Source: Solirubrobacteraceae bacterium
Lineage (GTDB): Bacteria > Actinomycetota > Thermoleophilia > Solirubrobacterales > Solirubrobacteraceae
Direction: 5' to 3'
NCBI GenBank assembly: GCA_017882465.1
Contig: JADGPN010000006.1
Span: 1-39,352, forward strand
Length of the DNA: 39,352 nt
Of the stretch, positions 29,172 through 38,407 are shown in pieces (position 1 is the first letter of the stretch; each line of letters starts with the position of its first letter). The notes beneath the pieces were generated by a model. The model was given only the letters and a program-made list of their open reading frames with translations, searched no databases and was not told the DNA's origin. A program made the position numbers and the translations under genes.

Positions 29172-29768
29172 TCACAGCTCGCGGTCCGCGGTGCGGTCGG
29201 CGGCCGTGCGGTCGCGAGTGGAGCCCCGCCGGCGGTCCATGCTGGCGCGGCCATCGGCCGCGCGGATGCTGCCCTTGGCGCGCAACAGCTGGCGCTCCAC
29301 GGTCCGCCGGGTCAGTCCATCACGGGCAGCCATCTCGGCGTAGCTGAAGCCCATCGCGTGCAGCCACAGCAGGCGCTGCTGACGCTCGGGCAGGTCCCGG
29401 ATCCGCGCCAGCCGCTCTCGCTGCTCGAACAGGTCCTCGGGCCCAGGCGAACGCGACCGAAGGGCCGAGTCGTCGGTTCCCTCGAGCGCAGCGTCCAGCG
29501 ACAGCTCGCGGTTCTCACGGCGGGTCAGCTTGAACGCCTCGCGGACCGCCGTCCTGGCCAGCCAGGACAGCGCCGCCTCGCGGCGGACGCGGTCCGCGTG
29601 GTGCACGAGCCGGATCCAGGCGAACGAGCACGCATCCTCGATCACCGGTTCTGGGGCGCGCACGTCCATCCGGACGATCTGCTCGAGCCGGCGCGACAGC
29701 GCGGCGTACAGGGCTCCGACGTCGCCGACGGTGTCGGAGCTGGCTGGGGTCGATGCGACGCGTTCCAT
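29172..29768 (-). CDS. Sigma-70 family (ECF-like) RNA polymerase sigma factor
   Basis: A 198-residue two-domain sigma factor. The N-terminal part (about 20-85) corresponds to region 2, with EDACSFAWIRLVHHADRVRR and ALSWLARTAVREAFKL. A linker leads to region 4 (about 120-172): RIRDLPERQQRLLWLHAMGF, SYAEMAARDGLTRRTVERQL, a helix-turn-helix for -35 binding. The C-terminus is a short Arg/Asp-rich tail. No anti-sigma gene is adjacent. Its stop is 153 bases before the lipid operon start and its start is 108 bases from the type IV secretion operon, so either could be its regulon. The ATG is preceded by TAGTCT 12 bases upstream. Confidence 0.82.
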   Translation of the reverse strand: MERVASTPASSDTVGDVGALYAALSRRLEQIVRMDVRAPEPVIEDACSFAWIRLVHHADRVRREAALSWLARTAVREAFKLTRRENRELSLDAALEGTDDSALRSRSPGPEDLFEQRERLARIRDLPERQQRLLWLHAMGFSYAEMAARDGLTRRTVERQLLRAKGSIRAADGRASMDRRRGSTRDRTAADRTADREL

Positions 29769-29777
29769 TTACTCTAA

Positions 29778-29805
29778 TTGAGACTAAGTTGATGCGATTT
29801 AATCT
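29778..29805 (+). promoter_or_regulatory. Promoter candidate for type IV secretion operon
   Basis: TTGAGA (29778-29783), 16 bases, TAATCT (29800-29805), in a 108-base AT-rich gap that contrasts with the GC-rich surroundings. A start near 29812 would give a leader of about 65 bases ending in AGGAGG, a strong ribosome binding site six bases before the ATG at 29877. Confidence 0.48.
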
Positions 29806-29810
29806 AGCAA
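29781..29810 (-). promoter_or_regulatory. Promoter candidate for sigma factor gene
   Basis: On the minus strand TTGCTA (29805-29810), 18 bases, TAGTCT (29781-29786), ending 12 bases before the sigma ATG. It overlaps the opposing promoter face to face, so the two cannot easily be occupied at once. Confidence 0.42.
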
Positions 29811-29830
29811 AGACCAAAGGAGCTTGCTAG
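29804..29830. promoter_or_regulatory. Inverted repeat, possible operator
   Basis: CTAGCAA (29804-29810) and TTGCTAG (29824-29830) form perfect 7-bp arms around 13 bases. The left arm covers the -10 of the secretion operon promoter and the -35 of the sigma gene promoter. It could be a repressor site for both, or a stem in the leader of the secretion transcript. Confidence 0.42.
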
Positions 29831-29876
29831 GTTGATTATTGCTCACCTCGATTCACCGTCATGTCAGGAGGTCTCA

Positions 29877-30197
29877 ATGGATCTATCGCTGGTATCCGTC
29901 GTTTCCCCGGCCGCCGCCGGCCAGACCGTCACCGCTCACCCGAGCCTCACCTCCCTGCCCGGGAGCAACGTGCTCCAGCAGCTCGTCAACGGCGCCGAGG
30001 CATGGGCGCTGGCGATCACCCTGCTCGGCGCGTTCGTGGGCGCTGGGCTGTGGGCCGTCGCTTCGCACTCGCACAACCACCACTACGCGGCGCGCGGGCG
30101 GATGGCGGCGCTGATCTCCGGGGCGGCAGCCCTGGTGGTGGGCGCCGCGCCCGGACTGGTGAACTTCTTCGAGCGCCTCGGCACGACTGCGCGGTAG
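29877..30197 (+). CDS. DUF6112-like small membrane protein, VirB2 pilin-like
   Basis: A 106-residue protein with two hydrophobic helices (about 43-63 and 75-98) separated by SHSHNHHYAARGRM. This layout, with a Gly/Asn/His loop and a second helix ending PGLVNFFERLG, is that of DUF6112 proteins, the small VirB2/TrbC-like first gene of actinobacterial type IV secretion loci. It probably forms the membrane-spanning subunit of the channel or a pilus-like structure. The ATG at 29877 is set by AGGAGG just upstream; in-frame codons farther up lie in AT-rich intergenic sequence. The next gene starts two bases after the stop. Confidence 0.68.
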   Translation: MDLSLVSVVSPAAAGQTVTAHPSLTSLPGSNVLQQLVNGAEAWALAITLLGAFVGAGLWAVASHSHNHHYAARGRMAALISGAAALVVGAAPGLVNFFERLGTTAR

Positions 30198-30199
30198 TC

Positions 30200-31924
30200 G
30201 TGGGCGCTCTCCGAGGACAGCTCCAACCCCGATCGCGACGGCCGGCGCGCGCGGGACGCCCACGGCGCCGGCGGGCGGGCGCGGCAGCCATCGCGGTGGT
30301 TGCGTCGATCCTGGTGGTGGCCTGCGCGCCACCAGCCGCGCGGGCCAAGCTCGATCCGCTCGGGGCCGCGTGCGGAGCCGCCAAGCTCTTCAGCGGCATC
30401 GCCGGCAAGGCCTGCGGGGCGCTCCGCTCGCCCGGCAAGATCCTGAGTGCCGGCAAGAAGCTGGCGACGGGTCACGTCGGGAGCGCAGCGAAGACGCTGC
30501 TGGGCGGAGGGGGCTCCAGCGTGGGCACCGCTGTGGGGCTCGCAGCGCTCGGTGCCTGGGTGCTCGGTGGCGCCCGATTCGCGCTCGCTGAGACGGCAAA
30601 GGTGCTCGGGCAGACGACGAGCCCCCAGTTGGAGAGCACCTGGTTCTCCGCCGCCTACTGGCGAATGGCGGGGATCGCTGCGCTGCTCACGATGCCATTC
30701 CTGTTCGCGGCGGTGGTTCAGGCGGTCGCGCATTCCGACCCGGCGCTGCTGGCCCGAGCGGCTTTAGGTTACCTGCCGCTGGCCCTGGTCGCAGTGGGGA
30801 TCGCGGCCCCGCTGACGATGCTGCTGCTGGCGGCGTCCGATCAGCTCTCCGCGGTGGTCTCCAGCGCGGCGGGTGGAGACGGGACCCGGTTCCTGGCCAA
30901 GGCGGGCGGGATCGTCGGGGTTCTCGCGGTGTTCCGCGGATCGCCGTTCCTGGCCTTCCTCGTGGGCCTGCTCGCGGCGGCGGGCGCGTTGGTGCTGTGG
31001 CTGGAGCTGCTGATGCGCGAGGCCGCCGTCTACGTGGTCGTGCTGATGCTCCCACTCGCCTTTGCGGCGATGGTGTGGCCCTCGCGGCGGGTGTGGGCGA
31101 TCCGAGCGATCGAGCTCCTGCTCGCGCTGGTACTGGCCAAGTTCGCGATCGTCGCGGTGCTGTCGCTCGGCGGCGCCGCCCTTGGTCACCGGGGCGGGAG
31201 CGGGATCGCCGGAGCCCTGGGCGGCGCCGTCCTCGTGATGATGGGCGCGTTCGCGCCGTGGGCCCTGTTGCGGTTGCTACCGGTGACCGAGCTGGCCAGC
31301 CGAGCGGCGGGACCGCTGCGCGGCGAGGCTCGCGCGTCCCTGCTCGCGGGAGAGGAAGCGGCCACGGCCTGGGCGACCCACGCGACCGGTTGGGCCGGTG
31401 GCGTGACCTCTTCCATGCGCCGCCAGGCCGGGGAGGTCGAGGTGTGGTCGCCGGAGAATGGGCCGCTGTCACCGGCGGCTCTGCCTGCTGGCGACAGCGA
31501 CAGCGCCGGTGAGGGCGCCGGCGCCGGGTCGCCGCCGGGTGGCGCACTCGACGTTCACGGGGCAAACGCCGCGCCGGCGGCGCCGGGAGCCGAGGCTGCT
31601 CCGGGAGAGGAGGCCACGCCGGGGGCGGAAGCTGGGTCGGGGACCGAGGCCGCGATGGCCGAGCCGGCGGCTGCGCGGAGCCCACGCTCCGGTGGTCCGA
31701 GCCAGGTCCTCCCGGAGGCCTCCGTGGGCGCGCCGGCCGAGGCGCCCGCCGCGGCCGAGCCGCCGGCCGGCGACGATCCCCCGTGGCCGCCCAAGCTGCA
31801 CGACCGCCCCCTGATCCTCGGTCTGAGCGCCTGGCCCCCACCCCCCGTGTGGGAGGGCGACGAGGCGACGGCTGGTGCCGAGGGCGCGCCCGATCCGAAC
31901 CCGCACGAGGATGGCCCGGAGTGA
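30200..31924 (+). CDS. VirB6/TrbL-like polytopic membrane protein of type IV secretion
   Basis: A 574-residue protein from a GTG two bases after the preceding stop. An Arg-rich N-terminus (PRRRRAG) precedes a signal-like helix (27-48, ending PPAARA). Membrane helices follow at about 108-128, 155-178, 187-212, 234-262, 275-293 and 303-325, with another near 338-362, the arrangement of TrbL/VirB6 channel proteins. Residues from about 395 on are a low-complexity Ala/Pro/Glu/Gly tail, probably exposed. VirB6 proteins form the inner-membrane pore with VirB3 and VirB4. Its stop overlaps the next GTG start (GTGA). Confidence 0.72.
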   Translation: MGALRGQLQPRSRRPARAGRPRRRRAGAAAIAVVASILVVACAPPAARAKLDPLGAACGAAKLFSGIAGKACGALRSPGKILSAGKKLATGHVGSAAKTLLGGGGSSVGTAVGLAALGAWVLGGARFALAETAKVLGQTTSPQLESTWFSAAYWRMAGIAALLTMPFLFAAVVQAVAHSDPALLARAALGYLPLALVAVGIAAPLTMLLLAASDQLSAVVSSAAGGDGTRFLAKAGGIVGVLAVFRGSPFLAFLVGLLAAAGALVLWLELLMREAAVYVVVLMLPLAFAAMVWPSRRVWAIRAIELLLALVLAKFAIVAVLSLGGAALGHRGGSGIAGALGGAVLVMMGAFAPWALLRLLPVTELASRAAGPLRGEARASLLAGEEAATAWATHATGWAGGVTSSMRRQAGEVEVWSPENGPLSPAALPAGDSDSAGEGAGAGSPPGGALDVHGANAAPAAPGAEAAPGEEATPGAEAGSGTEAAMAEPAAARSPRSGGPSQVLPEASVGAPAEAPAAAEPPAGDDPPWPPKLHDRPLILGLSAWPPPPVWEGDEATAGAEGAPDPNPHEDGPE

Positions 31925-33420
31925 GCGCGCAGCGGCTCACGTACCGTTTCGGGCCGCTGGACCGGCGCGGGATCCTCGGCCCGCTCCGGGCCGGCCAAGC
32001 GGTCGTGCTCGGTCTCGGGACGCTGCTGGCGATCGCGGTGGTCGACGGCGCCCCCAGCCCGCCCGGGGCACTCGCAGCCATGGTGCTCCTGGGCGCCGCA
32101 GGCGCGATCGCGTTCGTCCCGATCGCGTCACGCTCGCTGGTCGAATGGATGCCGATCGTGTGCCGATTCGCGGGGCGCCGGCTGCTCGGACGTGCGCGCG
32201 TTCGCTCTCCCGTCCCGGCAGCCGGGGTCGCGGGGCGCCGCCGGACTGCCTCCGCAGCGCTGGCCCTCGACCCGGCCGAGCCGGCGCCGCCTCCGGCGCT
32301 CGAGGGGGCGCGAATCGCCGAGATCACGTACCGGGAGCGGCCGCTCGGTGCGGTGTGCGAACGGGACGACCGGCTGCTGACCGCGGTGATCGCCTGCCGT
32401 GTGGTCACGTTCTCGCTGCTCGACCCCGAGGCCCAGGAGCGGCGGCTGGCCCGCTGGGGCTTGGTCCTCTCGGGCGCGGCCGGACCCGCGATCAGGAGAA
32501 TTCAGTGGGTGGAGCGGACCGCTCCTGCTCAGGGAGATGAGCTCGCGCGCTGGCTCGCGGCCGAGCGCGATCCCGCAGTCCCCCTCCGCGGAACCCCGAT
32601 GATCGAGTCCTACCTGGAGCTGATCGGGTCGACCACCAGGGCCACGCAGGACCACGAGATCCTGCTCGCCGTGCAGGTCGACGCGCGCCGAGTGCGAGAC
32701 CGAAGTCGGGGCGCCGCGGCGCGGGCGCTGGTGGACGAAGCGGAGCGGGTGGCGACCGGACTCGAGGCAGCAGGAGTGACGGTCCTCGGCGCGCTCGGTC
32801 CGCGGCAGCTGGCGCGGGCGCTGAGGACCGCGTTTGATCCCTATTCGCGCGCTGAGTTGGCGGCGCTCGAGACCGCCGACCCGGCACGCGAGGGACTGGA
32901 CGAGGCGAATGCGTGGCCGCTCGGCGCCGAGGAGGGCTGGGATCACTACCGCTGCGACGGAGCCCTGCACGCGACGTACTGGATCGGAGGCTGGCCACGG
33001 ACCGAGGTGTCGCCCATGTTCATGGACGCCCTGCTCGGGGGCTCGAGCACGGTCCGCGCGGTCGCGGTCACGTTCGAGCCGATTTCCGCTGACCGCTCCC
33101 GGAGAGACGTCGAGGCTGCCGTCACGCGAGAGCGGGCGGATGTCGATCTGCGCCGGCGCTTCGGACAGTCGGAGACCGCGCGCCAGCGCCAGGCCCAGGA
33201 GGCGACGATGCGCCGTGAGTCGGAGATCGCGGCGGGACATGCCGAGGTTCGCCTCAGCGGCTTCGTCACGGTGTCCGGCCGGGACGCCGACGATCTCCGG
33301 CGGGCGAGCTCCGAGGTGCTGGAGCACGCCGCCCGGGCCCGGCTCGAGCTCCACAGCATGTATGGCCAGCAGGCGGACGCGTTCACGTTCACGCTGCCGC
33401 TGTGCCGGGGACTGGCATGA
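31921..33420 (+). CDS. SCO6880-like protein (VirB3 plus VirB4 N-terminal half)
   Basis: A 499-residue protein beginning LTYRFGPLDRRGILGPLRAG, the opening I know from SCO6880-family proteins of actinobacterial conjugation loci. Two membrane helices (about 26-42 and 49-66) resemble VirB3/PrgI. The soluble remainder lacks Walker motifs. Its last 130 residues (arginine-rich helices RERADVDLRRRFGQSETARQ, then FVTVSGRDADDLRRASSEVL and MYGQQADAFTFTLPLCRG) read like the end of the VirB4 N-terminal domain, where a QQ-x-AF-x(3)-LP ending precedes the ATPase. The next gene starts with exactly that ATPase, overlapping by ATGA. I infer a split VirB4. Confidence 0.72.
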   Translation: MSAQRLTYRFGPLDRRGILGPLRAGQAVVLGLGTLLAIAVVDGAPSPPGALAAMVLLGAAGAIAFVPIASRSLVEWMPIVCRFAGRRLLGRARVRSPVPAAGVAGRRRTASAALALDPAEPAPPPALEGARIAEITYRERPLGAVCERDDRLLTAVIACRVVTFSLLDPEAQERRLARWGLVLSGAAGPAIRRIQWVERTAPAQGDELARWLAAERDPAVPLRGTPMIESYLELIGSTTRATQDHEILLAVQVDARRVRDRSRGAAARALVDEAERVATGLEAAGVTVLGALGPRQLARALRTAFDPYSRAELAALETADPAREGLDEANAWPLGAEEGWDHYRCDGALHATYWIGGWPRTEVSPMFMDALLGGSSTVRAVAVTFEPISADRSRRDVEAAVTRERADVDLRRRFGQSETARQRQAQEATMRRESEIAAGHAEVRLSGFVTVSGRDADDLRRASSEVLEHAARARLELHSMYGQQADAFTFTLPLCRGLA

Positions 33421-34691
33421 CCCGGCTGCGGGCTTCGGGCGCCGAGCGACCCGGGCACCGGAGCACCACGCGGCACGCGCAGGCGATTCACCCGTTCACG
33501 GCCACCGGCGGTCTCGGGGCCAGCGGCGCCTTCATCGGACGCGACTCGAGCGGCGGGGCGTTCTGCTACGACCCGTGGTTCCTGTACGGCAACGGCGTCC
33601 TCGACGACCCCAACGCGATCGTGCTCGGGAAGCTCGGGCAGGGCAAGAGCGCACTGGTGAAGACGCTGTTGTGGCGGATGCTGCTGTTCGGCCGGCGCGC
33701 TTTCGTGCTCGACGTCAAACGGGAGTACGGCCCGCTCTGCGAGGCGGTCGGCAGCCGCCCGATCTCACTCGTGCCGGGCGCCGGCGTGCGACTCAACCCC
33801 CTTGCCTCTCGGCCCGAGGAGCACGCGCAGCTCGAGCTGCTGCGGGCGGTCGCGGTGACCGCGATCGGCGGCTCGCTGTCCCAGAGCGAGGCCGCCGCGC
33901 TGCGCGAGGCGCTGCACACGGTCAGAAGCCAAGGCCGCGAGGAGCCGACGCTGCCCGAGATCGCCGGCGTCCTGTTCAGCCCCACCGCCGAGATGGCGCA
34001 GCGGATGCGGACCACGCCGACGATCCTGGCCGCCGACGCGCGCCGGGCCGCGCTGGCGCTTCAGGATCTCTGCGAAGGCCCGCTTCGGGGCATGTTCGAC
34101 GGCCCCACCTCCCCGGGGCTCGATCTCGAGAGCCGCCTCGTCGTCCTCGACCTGCACGCCGTCAAGGACTCCCCGGCAGTCGGCATCCTGATGGCGTGCG
34201 CAACGGCGTGGATGAGCGCGCTGCTGGCCCGCATGGCCGAACGGCCCGGACGCGAGCGGTTGATCAACGTCGCCGATGAGTCGTGGAAGATCGTCCAGCA
34301 CACCGGGCTGGGCGAATGGTTCCAGTCCAACTTCAAGCTCGCCCGGCAGTTCGGCGTGATGAACCTGGTCGTGCTGCACAAGCTGGCCGATCTCCAGGCC
34401 GCGGGCGATGCGGGCTCGCGCGCCGCCCGGATCGCCGAGGGCCTGATCGCCGATGCTTCGACCCGCATCGTCTACCACCAGGACGAGAGCCAGGTGCCGC
34501 TGACACGAGCGCTGCTGGGCCTGTCCGAGAGCGAGGCACGATTGATCTCGATGTTGTCGGCCGGACAGGCGCTGTGGCGCGTGGGCGCTCGCTCGTTCGT
34601 GGTCCAGCACTACCGCTCGCGGCTCGAGAGCCGGCTCACCGACACCGACACCGGGATGCGGGCCGCGCCCGGACGGATCAGCCGCCGATGA
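33417..34691 (+). CDS. VirB4-type ATPase domain of type IV secretion system
   Basis: A 424-residue ATPase. Walker A is GKLGQGKS (71-78); Walker B is RLINVADESWK with D287 and E288. FVLDVKREYGPLCEA (97-111) and the later VVLHKLADLQAA are usual for VirB4/TraC. At about half normal VirB4 length it lacks the N-terminal domain, which the preceding gene seems to supply. It energises channel assembly and transport. The ATG overlaps the previous stop by ATGA; its own stop overlaps the next ATG in the same way. Confidence 0.88.
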   Translation: MTRLRASGAERPGHRSTTRHAQAIHPFTATGGLGASGAFIGRDSSGGAFCYDPWFLYGNGVLDDPNAIVLGKLGQGKSALVKTLLWRMLLFGRRAFVLDVKREYGPLCEAVGSRPISLVPGAGVRLNPLASRPEEHAQLELLRAVAVTAIGGSLSQSEAAALREALHTVRSQGREEPTLPEIAGVLFSPTAEMAQRMRTTPTILAADARRAALALQDLCEGPLRGMFDGPTSPGLDLESRLVVLDLHAVKDSPAVGILMACATAWMSALLARMAERPGRERLINVADESWKIVQHTGLGEWFQSNFKLARQFGVMNLVVLHKLADLQAAGDAGSRAARIAEGLIADASTRIVYHQDESQVPLTRALLGLSESEARLISMLSAGQALWRVGARSFVVQHYRSRLESRLTDTDTGMRAAPGRISRR

Positions 34692-36379
34692 GACCCGAAC
34701 ACGGCCGCGGGGGCGGCGAGGAGATGCTTCTGGCCGGAGCCGCGGCCTGCCTCGGCGTCGCTGCCTTCGTGTGGTTGTGGGGGCAGCTGGCCGGTGTCCT
34801 GTTCGGCGCCGGATGGCCTCACGTCACACCAGGACAGGTGCTCGCAATTCTCGCTCGCCTGCCGGCCCGGCTGGCGACCCCGCGCGCGGCGTGGCCACTC
34901 GCCGCCAGGGCCGATCTTCCGGGGCCCGCCGGCTTCTACGTGCTGCTGGCCCCACTGCTCGGGATCGTCGCCGGGACCGTGCTGGCCGCAGTCAGGCCGG
35001 CGCGACCGGGATCCCCCCGCGCACATGGCCCCGCGCGCTGGGCCGGTCCGGCGGACCTGCGTTCCCTGCGGCGCCGGCCCCGCGACGGCACTGGCCCCCG
35101 GCTGGCCCTGGGTCGGGCCCGGGGACGGCTGCTGCGAGCCGAGCGCCGCCATGCCCTGGTGGTGTTCGGCCCGCCCCAGGCGGGCAAGTCGGCGGGGCTG
35201 GCGGTTCCGGCGCTGCTCGAATGGGTCGGCCCGGTGGTCGCGTCGTCGATCAAGACTGACCTCCTGCAGGCTACGATCGAGCGACGCCGGTCGCTCGGCC
35301 CGGTGATGATCTTCGACCCGTTCGGGCTCAGCGACGGCCCGTCGCAGGCCTGGTCCCCGCTCCGTGCCGCGACCACCTGGGACGGCGCGTTAGAAGCGGC
35401 TTGGCGGCTCGCCTCGGCGGGCGAGCTCGATCAGCGCCGCGTGGACGGCGGCGAGTTCTGGGCGGTGGCCGCCGAGCAGCGCCTGGCGCCGCTCATGTTC
35501 GCGGCCGCGGGAACCGGCGGAGGGATGGAGCGCGTGCTGCGCTGGGCCTACGGCCAGGACACGCGCGAGCTGGGAGAGAGCCTACGGCGTGTGGCCGACC
35601 ACGCCCCCGACGAGGCGCGGCTCGCCGATGCGCGCGCCGCATATGACTCGGCGAGGGCCTTCGAGTCCCAGGCCGACCGGACGCGGTCCTCGATCGAAGC
35701 CACCACGCAGGCGCTGCTGCGCGCGTATCGCTTCACCCGCGTCGCGCGCTCCGCCGCCACATCCGAGATCACTCCCGAGGCACTGCTTCAGAGCAACGCG
35801 ACGCTCTACCTGGTGGGCGACGCCAAGGCATCGAAGCTGCTGCGCCCGATCTTCATCGCCCTGATCTCGGAGATCGTCGACCGGGCTTACGAGCTGGCCG
35901 CGCGCGGGGGCGGCCGGCTCGAGCGACCGTTGCTGCTGTGCCTGGATGAGGCCGGGAACATCGCTCCCCTGCCCAACCTGGCGGAGATCGCCTCGACGGC
36001 ACCCAGCCACGACATCCAGCTGGTGTCGGTGTTCCACGATCTGGCCCAAGCGCGCCACCGCTACGGCCAGCAGGCCGAGACGGTGATCAACAGCCATCGA
36101 GCGAGGATGCTGCTGCCGGGCGTGGCCGACCTCGACACGCTGCGCTACTTCTCCGGACTGGCAGGCGAGACCGAGGTGCGCGACCTCACTCGGACCTCGG
36201 GCGGCGGCGGAAGCACCAGGTCGGTCACCCGCCGGGCCCGGGCGCTGGCGGCGCCGGAGGCGCTGCGACAGCTCGCGCCCGGACGCGCACTGCTGCTCTA
36301 TGGGCGCCTCCCGCCAGTCGAGGTCCGCCTGAGGATGTGGTTCGAGGACCGGCGACTTCGCCGGCTGGCGCGGTCGTGA
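34688..36379 (+). CDS. VirD4/TraG-type coupling protein
   Basis: A 563-residue membrane-anchored ATPase that recruits substrates to a type IV channel. Two N-terminal membrane helices (about 12-38 and 82-102) are followed by Walker A GPPQAGKS (161-168), SSIKTDLLQ (186-194), and Walker B LLLCLDEAGNI with D420 and E421. The insertion between them (about 250-360) would be the all-alpha substrate-selecting domain. FHDLAQARHRYGQQ and INSHRARMLLPG match the TraG/VirD4 C-terminal core. Coupling proteins normally pair with a relaxase; none is seen in the window. Confidence 0.9.
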   Translation: MRPEHGRGGGEEMLLAGAAACLGVAAFVWLWGQLAGVLFGAGWPHVTPGQVLAILARLPARLATPRAAWPLAARADLPGPAGFYVLLAPLLGIVAGTVLAAVRPARPGSPRAHGPARWAGPADLRSLRRRPRDGTGPRLALGRARGRLLRAERRHALVVFGPPQAGKSAGLAVPALLEWVGPVVASSIKTDLLQATIERRRSLGPVMIFDPFGLSDGPSQAWSPLRAATTWDGALEAAWRLASAGELDQRRVDGGEFWAVAAEQRLAPLMFAAAGTGGGMERVLRWAYGQDTRELGESLRRVADHAPDEARLADARAAYDSARAFESQADRTRSSIEATTQALLRAYRFTRVARSAATSEITPEALLQSNATLYLVGDAKASKLLRPIFIALISEIVDRAYELAARGGGRLERPLLLCLDEAGNIAPLPNLAEIASTAPSHDIQLVSVFHDLAQARHRYGQQAETVINSHRARMLLPGVADLDTLRYFSGLAGETEVRDLTRTSGGGGSTRSVTRRARALAAPEALRQLAPGRALLLYGRLPPVEVRLRMWFEDRRLRRLARS

Positions 36380-36813
36380 GCTTCGAGGACTTCGACGCTC
36401 CGCGCTGGGACGACTGGGACCCCGGCGGGCCCGGGGACCCCGATGCGCCGCGCTGGCCACTGGACTGGCGAGGCCTGTATCCGCGAGAGCGCTGGCTGTG
36501 GTTCGAGCGACTGTGGACCGACGCCTGCCGGCTGCGCGACCGCTATGGGCTGCCGCTGCGCTCGGGCTGGTGGGAGGCACCAGTGCAGGTCGAGGCGCTG
36601 GCCGCGCTGGCGGCGTGGACGGACCGCTACGACTCCGGTGAGTGGGACGACCCGCCCGGGAAGCTCGCGCTGCTGTTCGACCTCGAGCGGATCGCGGCGC
36701 TGCTGCGCGACGGCGGCGAGCCCTTCCATCCCGACCGCGACCGAGCGGTGTTCGCGCGGCACCTCGTCGATCTCGGCTGCCAGCCGCCGCCCCGAACCCG
36801 CGATCCCCGCTGA
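36376..36813 (+). CDS. Small Trp-rich DUF4913-like protein
   Basis: A 145-residue soluble acidic protein starting GTG (VSFEDFDAPRWDDWD), overlapping the coupling-protein stop by GTGA. It contains 11 tryptophans. The middle part, LWFERLWTDACRLRDRYGLP followed by GWWEAPVQVEALAALAAWTDRY and DPPGKLALLFDLERIAALL, has the spacing of DUF4913, a domain found next to transfer genes in actinomycetes. Function is unknown; as the last gene of the operon, after VirD4, it could be a substrate adaptor or a chaperone. Confidence 0.55.
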   Translation: MSFEDFDAPRWDDWDPGGPGDPDAPRWPLDWRGLYPRERWLWFERLWTDACRLRDRYGLPLRSGWWEAPVQVEALAALAAWTDRYDSGEWDDPPGKLALLFDLERIAALLRDGGEPFHPDRDRAVFARHLVDLGCQPPPRTRDPR

Positions 36814-36891: not shown

Positions 36892-36997
36892 ACGGGCTCG
36901 CCGCATTTGGGTGGTCTGATGGACGTTTGTTCTAGCGACCCGCACCGTCAGCGTGCCCCGACTGAGAGATGATGCGCACGACCGCCACACCAACACC

Positions 36998-37012
36998 AAG
37001 GAGCTTTGGGGC
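36998..37012 (+). promoter_or_regulatory. Ribosome binding site deciding gad start
   Basis: AAGGAG at about 36998-37003 lies roughly ten bases before ATG 37013. An in-frame ATG at 36953 would add 20 residues but has no such site and no family support. Confidence 0.55.
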
Positions 37013-38407
37013 ATGGCTTTGACCCGACCCACCCGTCGTCCCGCCGTGAAGAAGGCATTTGCAACCCCGGTCCACCACTCCGAGAACGAGCTCGAGATCC
37101 CGAAGCATCAGCTCGCCGAGCACGGCGTGCCGATCGACACCGCCTACGAGCTGATCTCCAACGAACTGCTCCTCGACGGTCACTCGCGGCTCAATCTGGC
37201 CACCTTCGTGACCACCTGGATGCCGTCGACGGCCGCCAAGCTGATGGCCGACACGGCCGACAAGAACATGATCGACAAGGACGAATACCCGCAGACGGCG
37301 GAGCTCGAGGAGCGCTGCGTCAACATCGTCGCCGACCTCTGGCACGCGCCGGAGGAGGAGCAGGCCACCGGCTGCTCGACCACGGGCTCGAGTGAGGCCG
37401 TGATGCTGTCGGGGATGGCGCTCAAGTGGCGCTGGCGAGCGCGCCTGCAGAAGGCCGGAAAGCCCTCCGATCGCCCGAATCTGGTGATGGGCTCCAACGT
37501 GCAGGTGTGCTGGGAGAAGTTCTGCCGCTACTGGGACGTCGAGGCCCGTTATGTGCCCGTGGAGGGCGATCGATACCACCTCGGCGCCGCGGAGGCGGTG
37601 GCCCTGTGCGACGAAAACACAATCGGCGTGGTCGTGATCCTCGGCTCCACGTTCGACGGGAGCTACGAGCCCGTGAAGGAGGTCGCCGGCTTGCTCGATG
37701 ACCTCCAGAGCGAGCACGGACTCGACGTCCCGGTGCACGTCGACGCCGCGTCGGGCGGATTCGTGGCGCCGTTCATCCAGCCCGACCTCGAATGGGACTT
37801 CCGGATTCCGCGAGTGCAGTCGATCAACGCCTCCGGTCACAAGTACGGCCTCGTCTACCCGGGGGTGGGGTGGGCGGTGTGGCGCAACAAGGAGGCGTTG
37901 CCGGAGGAGCTGATCTTCAACGTCAACTACCTGGGCGGCAACATGCCGACGTTCACGCTGAACTTCTCCCGTCCCGGGAGTGAGGTGATCGCGCAGTACC
38001 TGATGTTCATGAGCCTGGGTCGCGAGGGCTACACACGAGTCATGCAGTACGCCCAGGACGTGGCGATGCGGATCTCCTCCGGGGTCGCGGAGATGGGCCC
38101 GTATCGCCTGCTCAGCGACGGCGGCGAGCTGCCCGTGTTCGCGTTCACGCTCAAGCCCGAGGTCGAGAACTACACGGTGTTCGACGTCTCGGACCGCCTG
38201 CGGATGCGCGGTTGGCTGGTGCCGGCGTACACGTTCCCGGCCAACCTGGAGGAGCTGAGCGTGCTGCGGGTCGTGGTCCGCGCGGGGATGACACTGGACA
38301 TGGCCGACATGCTGCTCGAGCACCTCCGTGACGCGACCGAGTTCCTGGAGTCCCTCGACGCGCCGCTCGCCTCGTTGCAAGAGCACAATCAGGCGTTCGC
38401 ACATTGA
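37013..38407 (+). CDS. gad: Glutamate decarboxylase
   Basis: A 464-residue PLP-dependent enzyme converting glutamate to GABA while consuming a proton, usually for acid tolerance. Signatures are GCSTTGSSEAVMLSGMALKW (120-139), the PLP aspartate D244 in HVDAASGGF and the Schiff-base lysine K277 in SINASGHKYGL. The N-terminal YELISNELLLDGHSRLNLATF and the C-terminal tail ending in histidine match bacterial GadB, in which the tail closes the active site at neutral pH. No GABA antiporter gene is adjacent. The AAGGAG site upstream fixes the start. It is convergent with glycerate kinase. Confidence 0.96.
   Translation: MALTRPTRRPAVKKAFATPVHHSENELEIPKHQLAEHGVPIDTAYELISNELLLDGHSRLNLATFVTTWMPSTAAKLMADTADKNMIDKDEYPQTAELEERCVNIVADLWHAPEEEQATGCSTTGSSEAVMLSGMALKWRWRARLQKAGKPSDRPNLVMGSNVQVCWEKFCRYWDVEARYVPVEGDRYHLGAAEAVALCDENTIGVVVILGSTFDGSYEPVKEVAGLLDDLQSEHGLDVPVHVDAASGGFVAPFIQPDLEWDFRIPRVQSINASGHKYGLVYPGVGWAVWRNKEALPEELIFNVNYLGGNMPTFTLNFSRPGSEVIAQYLMFMSLGREGYTRVMQYAQDVAMRISSGVAEMGPYRLLSDGGELPVFAFTLKPEVENYTVFDVSDRLRMRGWLVPAYTFPANLEELSVLRVVVRAGMTLDMADMLLEHLRDATEFLESLDAPLASLQEHNQAFAH

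What the first reader, a model, noticed from the sequence alone, without database searches (positions are those of the whole stretch)
29877..36813. Compact chromosomal type IV secretion operon without a visible relaxase
Seen: six genes each overlapping or within two bases of the next: DUF6112-like, VirB6-like, SCO6880-like, VirB4 ATPase, VirD4 ATPase and a DUF4913-like protein. Known: this gene set belongs to actinobacterial conjugation loci. No relaxase, integrase, replication protein or lytic transglycosylase appears in the 39 kb, and the flanks are lipid-modifying and amino acid metabolism genes with the same codon bias. Inference: either a domesticated secretion machine that exports protein or DNA without classical mobilisation, or the transfer part of an element whose other parts lie outside. 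The minimal gene set and sigma-factor neighbour make it a good candidate for an undescribed system.
Basis: partly seen in the sequence, partly recalled or inferred. Interest (0 to 1): 0.75.

Follow-up and report, generated by a model that had tools for sequence, protein, structure and literature searches.

The report
Chromosome-fixed secretion machine without DNA nickase
A group of soil bacteria related to Conexibacter has kept a conjugation-type secretion machine at one fixed chromosomal spot, without the enzyme that normally starts DNA transfer, and has put it under its own control switch, so it probably does a job for the cell and not for a mobile element.

Summary
The six-gene operon is real: pilin-like DUF6112, SCO6881-like VirB6, SCO6880, VirB4 ATPase, VirD4 and a small helical protein (T6; not detectably DUF4913). 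It does not look like an ICE. VirB4 was found in 26 of 28 genomes of the genus, SCO6880 in 25 of 28 genus genomes and 2 of 33 outside it. Neighbours are fixed: a divergent ECF sigma gene in 17 of 17 testable relatives, glutamate decarboxylase in 15 of 18. The tree agrees with rpoB; the genes are under purifying selection. In about 119 kb around it in two closed chromosomes, none of my relaxase, integrase or transposase probes hits. SCO6880 is predicted, at low confidence, to fold like VirB4, so VirB4 is probably split over two genes. The sigma/pilin promoter carries 10-bp-phased AATT repeats matching the published BldC operator; the same repeats precede a BldC-like regulator gene and, in part of the genus, a distant hydrolase gene homologous to ICE T4SS genes. 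Best reading: a domesticated, host-regulated T4SS with dispersed parts. Its substrate is unknown; I favour VirD4-dependent protein export. New variant of a known kind.

The parts
29172..29768 (-). ECF-type sigma factor gene, divergent from the T4SS operon and conserved with it; the true start may lie further in, because the operator array overlaps the called start
   Evidence: TIGR02937 E 3.1e-13; next to the pilin gene in 17 of 17 relatives whose contig reaches it (L040 ends 265 bp short)
29764..29791 (-). 10-bp-phased repeat array (unit TCAATTAGnC) matching the published BldC consensus AATT(N3-4)(C/G)
   Evidence: PWM sites 29774-29791 (29.4) and 29764-29781 (20.5); leave-one-out score >=16 in 19 of 19 loci against 0 of 253 other upstream regions; shuffles
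29803..29831 (.). central inverted pair TCTAGC...GCTAGG between the two start codons, promoter-core-like
   Evidence: recurs, often with one or more changes, in many but not all relatives; a promoter role is inference
29877..30197 (+). VirB2/pilin-like DUF6112 protein, two hydrophobic segments
   Evidence: PF19607 E 1.2e-7; PF18895 T4SS_pilin 3e-4, below cut-off; hydropathy
30194..31924 (+). VirB6-like membrane protein, SCO6881-like, with a variable Pro/Ala/Gly-rich C-terminal tail (start possibly 30296)
   Evidence: NF047967 E 8e-8, below cut-off; seven hydrophobic segments; conserved core, variable tail
31921..33420 (+). SCO6880 family protein, predicted VirB3-like TM pair plus VirB4 N-terminal domain (inference)
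   Evidence: NF042935 E 1.3e-87; model pLDDT 55 whose 14 best PDB matches are all chains of R388 T4SS entries that contain VirB4/TrwK
33402..34691 (+). VirB4 ATPase, C-terminal P-loop part only (start 33402 or 33417)
   Evidence: PF19044 E 1.9e-14; TIGR00929 columns 439-727 of 792; Walker A in 24 of 25 loci, the exception a contig-end fragment
34685..36379 (+). VirD4/TraG coupling protein (start probably 34688)
   Evidence: PF02534 E 2.3e-34, PF12696 2.2e-18; Walker A in 21 of 21 loci
36376..36813 (+). T6, small four-helix protein of unknown family; candidate VirD4 adaptor
   Evidence: conserved WW...YD..EWdDPPGKL block in 19 sequences; model pLDDT 84; no PDB fold at E<=0.001; Pfam finds no family in the window protein
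36953..38407 (+). glutamate decarboxylase, fixed neighbour, not part of the machine
   Evidence: TIGR01788 E 1.5e-195; downstream in 15 of 18 relatives with T6; of the other three, two contigs end within 450 bp and L048 has none in 2.3 kb

Best explanation
A domesticated type IV secretion system of the chromosome. SHOWN by sequence: a reduced conjugation core (pilin, VirB6-like, SCO6880, VirB4 ATPase, VirD4, T6) sits at one fixed place in nearly all sampled members of one Solirubrobacterales genus, is inherited with the chromosome, is under purifying selection, and has no homologue of the relaxase and integrase probes nearby. It shares a phased-repeat promoter element with a BldC-like regulator gene and, in part of the genus, with a distant hydrolase gene that, with its lipoprotein-like neighbour, is homologous to two consecutive T4SS genes of ICE-like elements in the same genus. 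INFERRED mechanism: SCO6880 anchors the split VirB4 ATPase in the membrane as a VirB3-VirB4N unit; the VirB6-like protein and the pilin build the pore and a short pilus; the hydrolase opens the wall; VirD4, perhaps with T6 as adaptor, picks the substrate; a BldC-like protein filament on the repeats and the divergent ECF sigma factor set when it is made. Because VirD4 is kept while the relaxase is not, I think export of proteins chosen by VirD4/T6 is most likely (about 0.45), relaxase-independent transfer of chromosomal DNA next (about 0.3), and a structural or developmental role as for Streptomyces Cmd last (about 0.2).
For: Presence: VirB4 in 26 of 28 genus genomes, and in 13 of 13 that are at least 90% complete and at most 5% contaminated; the two misses are 76% and 69% complete. 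SCO6880 in 25 of 28 genus genomes and 2 of 33 others; of those two, G028's copy lies in an ICE-like stretch with TrwC and SSB homologues, G048's is unclassified. Fixed neighbours. Vertical inheritance: SCO6880+VirB4 tree against rpoB in 17 genomes, Mantel r 0.73, 0 of 5000 permutations as high, 9 of 14 splits shared, no conflict among splits with support >=95 (4 in one tree, 6 in the other). Selection: dN/dS below 1 for all six genes in the 12 closest pairs printed. Relaxase independence: TrwC in 15 of 28 and PF03432 in 2 of 28 genus genomes; G003, G009, G016, G017 and G023, all at least 90% complete, have neither but keep the T4SS. Split VirB4. Regulon; BldC consensus in PMC5859096 and PMC6428758 (passages). 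Dispersed hydrolase/lipoprotein. Reduction from an ICE-type ancestor: one relative (L037) still has a gene between pilin and SCO6881 of the kind that ICE-like and plasmid relatives carry (26% to the Iamia protein, E 1e-6).
Against: No expression, secretion or DNA-transfer data. The gene between pilin and SCO6881 is missing in 18 of 19 loci, and no wall-hydrolase gene was recognised in the operon. The distant hydrolase shares the operator in only 7 of 19 loci at score >=16, one of them the query's own locus to which the motif had led me; in G002 the site lies before the DnaJ/TPR gene without the hydrolase beside it. The lipoprotein-like gene was not found in 8 of 21 loci, two of which run off the contig. 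Two relatives (L037, L041) have an apparent frameshift in SCO6880; since L035 shows one in glutamate decarboxylase too, assembly error is likely but not proven. The SCO6880 model has low confidence (pLDDT 55), and the search did not say which part of VirB4 it aligns to. BldC-like identity rests on phmmer E 3e-4 and 9e-4 and Pfam HTH_17, with a phage Xis as the best PDB match; other BldC-like proteins may exist. Only TrwC and PF03432 relaxases were searched genome-wide.
Confidence: 0.8

Rival explanations
1. It is the transfer region of an ordinary integrative conjugative element whose relaxase, integrase and other parts lie outside the window.
For: Gene order matches actinobacterial ICE-like elements and plasmids, e.g. 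in G015 and Iamia plasmid NZ_CP050950.1 with a MobF relaxase. The same genus carries several ICE-like elements.
Against: Near-universal in the genus at one place with vertical inheritance. About 119 kb around it in each of two closed chromosomes gives no relaxase, integrase or transposase homologue with 18 probe proteins. No tRNA in the six loci examined around it. ICE-like elements in the genus carry SSB-like, primase-like, Xis/Int-like and TrwC genes in the same stretch or nearby.
Confidence: 0.04
2. A helper machine for mobilisable elements: IME-like modules that carry their own TrwC relaxase and coupling protein but no VirB4 borrow this fixed T4SS to move between cells.
For: In the closed genome G011, four 20-kb stretches pair TrwC with a VirD4-like protein and hold no homologue of either VirB4 type (L119-L122); in L121 the relaxase is only a fragment.
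Against: G011 also has a second, full-length VirB4 in an ICE-like stretch (L143) that could serve them. Genomes without TrwC keep the fixed T4SS. Each such module carries its own coupling protein, and no interaction was tested. Long-term conservation in the host needs a host benefit.
Confidence: 0.2
3. A relaxase-independent DNA exchange system, working like archaeal Ced/Ted but keeping VirD4, possibly fed by the second genus-core pair (Replic_Relax-like protein plus orphan coupling ATPase).
For: Minimal pilin/VirB6/VirB4 set as described for Ced/Ted (PMC9905601 passages); VirD4 kept; an orphan TrwB-like ATPase in 28 of 28 genus genomes, with a Replic_Relax-like neighbour and fixed flanks where the fetched loci reach them.
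Against: The orphan pair does not share the promoter element (0 sites >=18 in a background set that includes its loci). The Replic_Relax match is below Pfam's cut-off. No DNA-transfer data.
Confidence: 0.3
4. A decaying relic of an old ICE kept by chance.
For: Two relatives show an apparent frameshift in SCO6880; the gene between pilin and SCO6881 is missing in 18 of 19 loci.
Against: Genes stay open over deep divergence in most loci; Walker A in 24 of 25 VirB4 (the exception a fragment) and 21 of 21 VirD4; dN/dS below 1; promoter element found in 19 of 19 loci.
Confidence: 0.03

Closest known systems
cmdABCDEF (SCO4126-4131), Streptomyces coelicolor (PMC2782261, parts 1-2 of 4 and searched passages read)
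   Same: Chromosomal six-gene cluster with orthologues in S. lividans and S. avermitilis; [quoted passage not shown] (my reading) the VirB4, SCO6880 and SCO6881 kinds seen here; no effect on transfer of the plasmid tested; developmentally regulated.
   Different: No VirD4 or T6 is named in the passages read; different genus and neighbours; the paper reports sporulation and chromosome-segregation phenotypes, which cannot be assumed here.
Actinobacterial ICE/plasmid T4SS (Iamia plasmid NZ_CP050950.1; Streptomyces angustmyceticus plasmid p1; ICE-like elements of G015)
   Same: Order DUF6112 - VirB6 - SCO6880 - VirB4, on the Iamia plasmid and in G015 followed by VirD4; VirB4 39-41% identical to the two Iamia plasmids.
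   Different: Both plasmids and the compared G015 elements L072-L074 have an extra gene between pilin and VirB6. A peptidase lies nearby on the plasmids; L072 has an SLT-like protein (below Pfam's cut-off). The Iamia plasmid has a MobF relaxase, and TrwC genes lie in or near G015 elements. The fixed locus has none of these in place.
Archaeal Ced/Ted DNA import systems (PMC9905601, passages read)
   Same: Domesticated conjugation core on the chromosome, no relaxase, minimal pilin/VirB6/VirB4 set.
   Different: Ced/Ted are described there with those three homologues and shown or proposed to move DNA; here VirD4, SCO6880 and T6 are kept and the substrate is unknown.
Patescibacteria T4SS (PMC12102498, abstract and passages read)
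   Same: Chromosomal, widespread in the group, mostly without relaxase, monoderm-type.
   Different: T4CP mostly far from virB4 there; tied to epibiotic growth; most of its VirB4 forms a clade of its own according to that paper.
BldC of Streptomyces (PMC5859096 and PMC6428758, passages read)
   Same: Operator units AATT(N3-4)(C/G) repeated along the helix; BldC entries 6amk/6ama are two of the three PDB matches of the regulator whose gene shares the element.
   Different: The protein here is longer (called lengths 96-125 aa; BldC is 68 residues); binding is untested; a search for papers holding both BldC and cmdB gave none.

Membership tests
Type IV secretion system | VirB4-family ATPase with intact Walker motifs | tested here: met
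   Walker A in 24 of 25 loci, a strict Walker B expression in 21 of 25; ATPase part only, with the N-terminal part probably a separate gene
Type IV secretion system | VirB3/VirB6/VirB2-like membrane partners | tested here: inconclusive
   DUF6112 above cut-off, SCO6881 model far below cut-off; SCO6880 model resembles VirB4 with two N-terminal TM-like helices but pLDDT 55
Type IV secretion system | VirD4-type coupling protein | tested here: met
   Walker A in 21 of 21 loci, a strict Walker B expression in 12 of 21
Integrative conjugative element | relaxase in the same element | tested here: not met
   none in the window nor in about 119 kb around the locus in G011 and 118 kb in G015 with four TrwC probes; nearest TrwC in G011 about 150 kb away
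Integrative conjugative element | integrase/excisionase and attachment sites | tested here: not met
   no homologue of five recombinase probes and one excisionase probe; no tRNA in six loci examined; in the window's operon region only three imperfect direct repeat families of 18-24 nt, all inside genes
Integrative conjugative element | patchy presence, variable position | tested here: not met
   26 of 28 genomes; fixed neighbours
Cmd system (cmdABCDEF) | VirB4, SCO6880-like and SCO6881-like genes on the chromosome, no relaxase | tested here: met
   the SCO6881 match is below its model's cut-off
Cmd system (cmdABCDEF) | role in sporulation and chromosome segregation | not testable with these tools
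   needs mutants
Cmd system (cmdABCDEF) | CmdA, CmdE, CmdF homologues | not tested
   their sequences were not fetched
Ced/Ted DNA importer | DNA import | not testable with these tools
   needs an exchange assay
DUF4913 (for T6) | match to PF16259 | tested here: not met
   0 of 19 members at E<=1; a true DUF4913 protein at this place in another element scores 1.8e-38
BldC regulon | phased AATT(N3-4)(C/G) repeats in the promoter | tested here: met
   against the consensus
BldC regulon | binding by a BldC-family protein | not testable with these tools
   needs EMSA or ChIP

The most novel reading that the evidence does not exclude
A bacterial genus has turned a conjugation apparatus into a growth-phase-controlled organelle whose parts are scattered over the chromosome and wired together by a BldC-type operator: core T4SS with split VirB4, a separate wall-hydrolase/lipoprotein unit, a BldC-like master regulator, and possibly an orphan coupling ATPase with a Replic_Relax-like partner that hands over chromosomal DNA without a classical relaxase, giving a bacterial counterpart of archaeal Ced.
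Probability: 0.2. Interest if true: 0.88.

Novelty: new variant of a known kind. Interest (0 to 1): 0.66.

Why it matters
Domesticated T4SSs show how machines of mobile elements become cell organelles. Here a reduced conjugation core is tied to its neighbours across a whole genus, two closed genomes of named strains carry it, and a specific promoter element names a candidate regulator and candidate missing parts, so the questions 'what does it move?' and 'who switches it on?' become directly testable. The predicted split of VirB4 into SCO6880 plus a short ATPase would also give a function to the SCO6880 family, which is annotated on plasmids of other Actinomycetota.

Tried and rejected
DUF4913 identity of the last gene: rejected. 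'The fixed locus holds the only VirB4 of closed genome G011': drafted, withdrawn after one search found a full-length VirB4 at 3071043. The orphan coupling ATPase/Replic_Relax pair as a member of the same regulon: no promoter element found. Fold of T6: no PDB match at E<=0.001. Sequence profile of SCO6880 against PDB sequences: 0 hits at E<=1. T6 in plasmids: none. DNA repeats as attachment sites: only short imperfect repeats inside genes. Paper searches for this locus in Solirubrobacterales and for DUF6112 listed nothing relevant by title and abstract; only open-licence PMC texts are held.

Rows dropped and limits of the counts. The tree used the 17 genomes with SCO6880, VirB4 and rpoB pieces of sufficient length, out of 26 listed there. 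dN/dS was printed for the 12 closest of 300 VirB4 pairs; the ranges given are over those 12, and not every gene is present in every pair. The PWM was trained on the 19 T4SS promoters on which it was first shown. In the leave-one-out test the training sites were picked with a consensus that I had drawn from all 19, so a little information leaks; the 253 control regions include operon-internal starts, and the shuffles are the control for base composition. The hydrolase loci were fetched by protein similarity, but the query's own locus (G018) had been found through the motif, so the fair count is 6 of 18. The regulator-gene sites were found through the pattern search itself, so their number has no unbiased denominator.
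Full report
WHAT IS THERE. The six genes lie on the + strand and very likely overlap by 4 nt each. Profiles confirm DUF6112, SCO6880, the VirB4 ATPase part and VirD4. The second gene is SCO6881-like only below that model's cut-off, with seven hydrophobic segments, as expected for a VirB6-like protein. The last gene, here called T6, is not DUF4913 by the tests made. The window is the whole contig C679 of a 757-contig draft genome of 5.5 Mb, 95% complete.

POSITION AND INHERITANCE. Searching whole genomes, SCO6880 was found in 25 of 28 genomes of the genus and in 2 of 33 other genomes of family and order. VirB4 was found in 26 of 28, and in 13 of 13 good-quality ones; the two without it are 76% and 69% complete. 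A scan of named genomes gave 24 loci: 22 MAG contigs labelled Solirubrobacterales, Solirubrobacteraceae, Actinomycetes or Actinobacteria, and the closed genomes of Conexibacter sp. S30A1 and DBS9H8. The ECF sigma gene is divergent from the pilin gene in 17 of 17 relatives that reach it. Glutamate decarboxylase lies downstream in 15 of 18 relatives with T6; of the other three, two contigs end within 450 bp and L048 has none in 2.3 kb. Other genes may be inserted between. A tree of SCO6880+VirB4 agrees with rpoB in 17 genomes: Mantel r 0.73, none of 5000 permutations as high, 9 of 14 splits shared, no conflict among the splits with support >=95, of which there are 4 and 6. Over the 12 closest pairs printed, dN/dS is 0.09-0.39 for VirB4, 0.12-0.32 for VirD4, 0.14-0.40 for SCO6880, 0.10-0.29 for the pilin, 0.10-0.59 for T6, 0.34-0.63 for SCO6881 and 0.40-0.80 for the sigma gene.

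NOT AN ICE. TrwC-type relaxases occur in 15 of 28 genus genomes and PF03432 in 2 of 28. G003, G009, G016, G017 and G023, all at least 90% complete, have neither but keep the T4SS. In about 119 kb around the locus in G011 and 118 kb in G015, 18 probe proteins (relaxases, integrases, excisionase, transposases, SSB, primase and others; labels mostly my reading) hit only VirD4 itself and, in G015, the hydrolase gene described below, some 44 kb away. ICE-like elements in the same genus look different. G015 has T4SS copies with an SLT-like protein, an extra gene between pilin and SCO6881, and SSB-like, primase-like and Xis/Int-like genes; TrwC lies in the same stretch in L073 and about 17 kb from the pilin gene for L072. 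A plasmid of Iamia has the same order plus a MobF relaxase. One relative (L037) still has a 258-aa gene between pilin and SCO6881 that matches the extra gene of Iamia (26%, E 1e-6); the other 18 loci examined, the window among them, have no room for it. I read this as reduction from an ICE-type ancestor.

SPLIT VirB4. The VirB4 here matches only columns 439-727 of the 792-column VirB4 model. A model of SCO6880 (pLDDT 55, pTM 0.48; two long N-terminal helices in the hydrophobic stretch) has 16 PDB matches at E<=0.001. The best 14 are all chains of R388 T4SS entries (E 9e-8 to 1e-5, TM 0.34-0.40). Four of them (7o42, 7o43) come from entries of TrwK/VirB4 itself; the others I take for VirB4 from entry title and chain length. 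The remaining two are an alkyldihydroxyacetonephosphate synthase. So SCO6880 is probably the VirB3-like anchor plus N-terminal part of VirB4. The model is weak, the search does not say which part of VirB4 is aligned, and sequence profiles find no PDB relative.

T6. Nineteen members share a conserved block around WW...YD..EWDDPPGKL. The model is confident (pLDDT 84, four helices) with no PDB match at E<=0.001. In 399 genomes of the class, strong hits (E<=4.1e-52) occur in 18 genus genomes, with one sampled genus genome (G014) listed as without; 7 other genomes have weak hits (E 1e-11 to 3e-4). An ICE-like element in G015 carries a 49% relative next to a VirD4 of 51% identity (L074). An adaptor role for VirD4 is inference from this pairing.

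A SHARED PROMOTER ELEMENT. Alignment of the sigma/pilin intergenic regions shows AT-rich repeats, unit TCAATTAGnC, spaced by about 10 bp and mirrored around a CCTAGC...GCTAGG pair in many loci. A leave-one-out weight matrix scores >=16 in 19 of 19 loci (>=18 in 16) and in 0 of 253 upstream regions of other genes in the same loci. Of 500 dinucleotide shuffles each, 0 reach the observed score in 15 loci and 1-2 do in L042, L048, L049 and L056. A background of 0.80 Mb has 2 sites >=16 and 0 >=18. The unit fits the published BldC consensus AATT(N3-4)(C/G), repeated about once per helical turn (PMC5859096, PMC6428758; passages). A genus-wide pattern search followed by matrix scoring of all loci then held puts every site scoring >=20 in one of three contexts: the T4SS promoter; the promoter of an HTH_17 protein gene (9 genomes: G001, G003, G011, G013, G017, G019, G020, G024, G026); and the promoter of a DnaJ/TPR-like gene (G002, G004, G018, G021), which in G018 and G021 diverges from a gene for a secreted protein, in G002 does not, and in G004 lies at a contig end. 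The HTH_17 protein matches a phage Xis (4j2n) and BldC (6amk, 6ama) in the PDB (6AMK and 4J2N are named so in PMC11963761). Its place under the same element suggests an autoregulated BldC-like master regulator (inference).

A CANDIDATE FOR THE MISSING WALL ENZYME. The secreted protein is 42% identical (E 2e-63) to the gene that follows the full-length VirB4 in another ICE-like type of the genus (L143). Its 184-aa neighbour is 36% identical (E 3e-18) to the next gene of such an element (L146). Pfam names neither the secreted protein nor its L143 homologue. Its C-terminal region is shared with the SLT-like protein that heads another ICE-like operon, and a C40 peptidase holds that place in a Streptomyces plasmid. 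Among 19 genus loci fetched by protein similarity that carry both this gene and the DnaJ/TPR gene, 7 have a site >=16 between them (16.3-30.1), 12 do not; without the query's own locus it is 6 of 18. The lipoprotein-like neighbour was found in 13 of 21 loci; two of the other eight run off the contig. So co-regulation of this second unit is limited to part of the genus.

HOW IT MAY WORK. See the best explanation. The Streptomyces cmd operon, with genes said to resemble SCO6878, SCO6880 and SCO6881, is chromosomal, developmentally regulated and needed for normal sporulation and chromosome segregation; its loss did not change transfer of the plasmid tested, and its authors raise a type IV-like channel as a question for further study. 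Mutants of SCO6878 or SCO6881 themselves had no such phenotype (PMC2782261, parts 1-2 of 4 and passages). Ced/Ted (PMC9905601) and Patescibacteria (PMC12102498) show relaxase-less chromosomal T4SSs kept by cells (abstract and passages). VirD4 being kept here argues for a selected substrate. I put protein export at about 0.45, DNA exchange at about 0.3 and a structural or developmental role at about 0.2.

VERDICT. It is a new variant of a known kind. What it moves is not known.

Noticed in passing
G000:C457:42555-44129 (L131 7553-9885) and L148-L174: Second genus-core locus: an orphan TrwB/TraD-like coupling ATPase in 28 of 28 genus genomes, next to a Replic_Relax-like protein (match below Pfam's cut-off) and, where the fetched loci reach, between a diacylglycerol-kinase-like gene (my reading) and a conserved ~765-aa gene. 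No shared promoter element seen.
   Followed up: partly
L119, L120, L121, L122 (G011): IME-like modules with TrwC relaxase (a fragment in L121) and their own VirD4-like protein but no homologue of either VirB4 type within the 20 kb fetched.
   Followed up: partly
L143 (G011), L145 (G000:C211), L146 (G007), L147 (G024): A different T4SS type with full-length 883-899 aa VirB4; in L143, L146 and L147 it lies with the hydrolase and lipoprotein homologues of the dispersed unit.
   Followed up: partly
window 31921-33420: Pfam's EccE model (type VII secretion) matches residues 248-355 of SCO6880, inside the part predicted to resemble VirB4; a possible link between EccE and VirB4 domains.
   Followed up: no
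L258-L261, L263, L264: The HTH_17 (BldC-like) gene is followed by a conserved ~157-163-aa gene; Pfam finds no family for the L259 copy.
   Followed up: no
L036 5820-6995, L038 13289-14506, L040 9805-11031, L048 11910-13100, L057 10439-11746: A cytochrome P450-like gene lies downstream of T6 in these relatives, before glutamate decarboxylase where that is present (the family name is my reading of the sequence, no profile was run).
   Followed up: no
window 29877-36813: The T4SS operon is richer in G+C (71-77% in 1-kb windows) than the rest of the window (66-73%).
   Followed up: no
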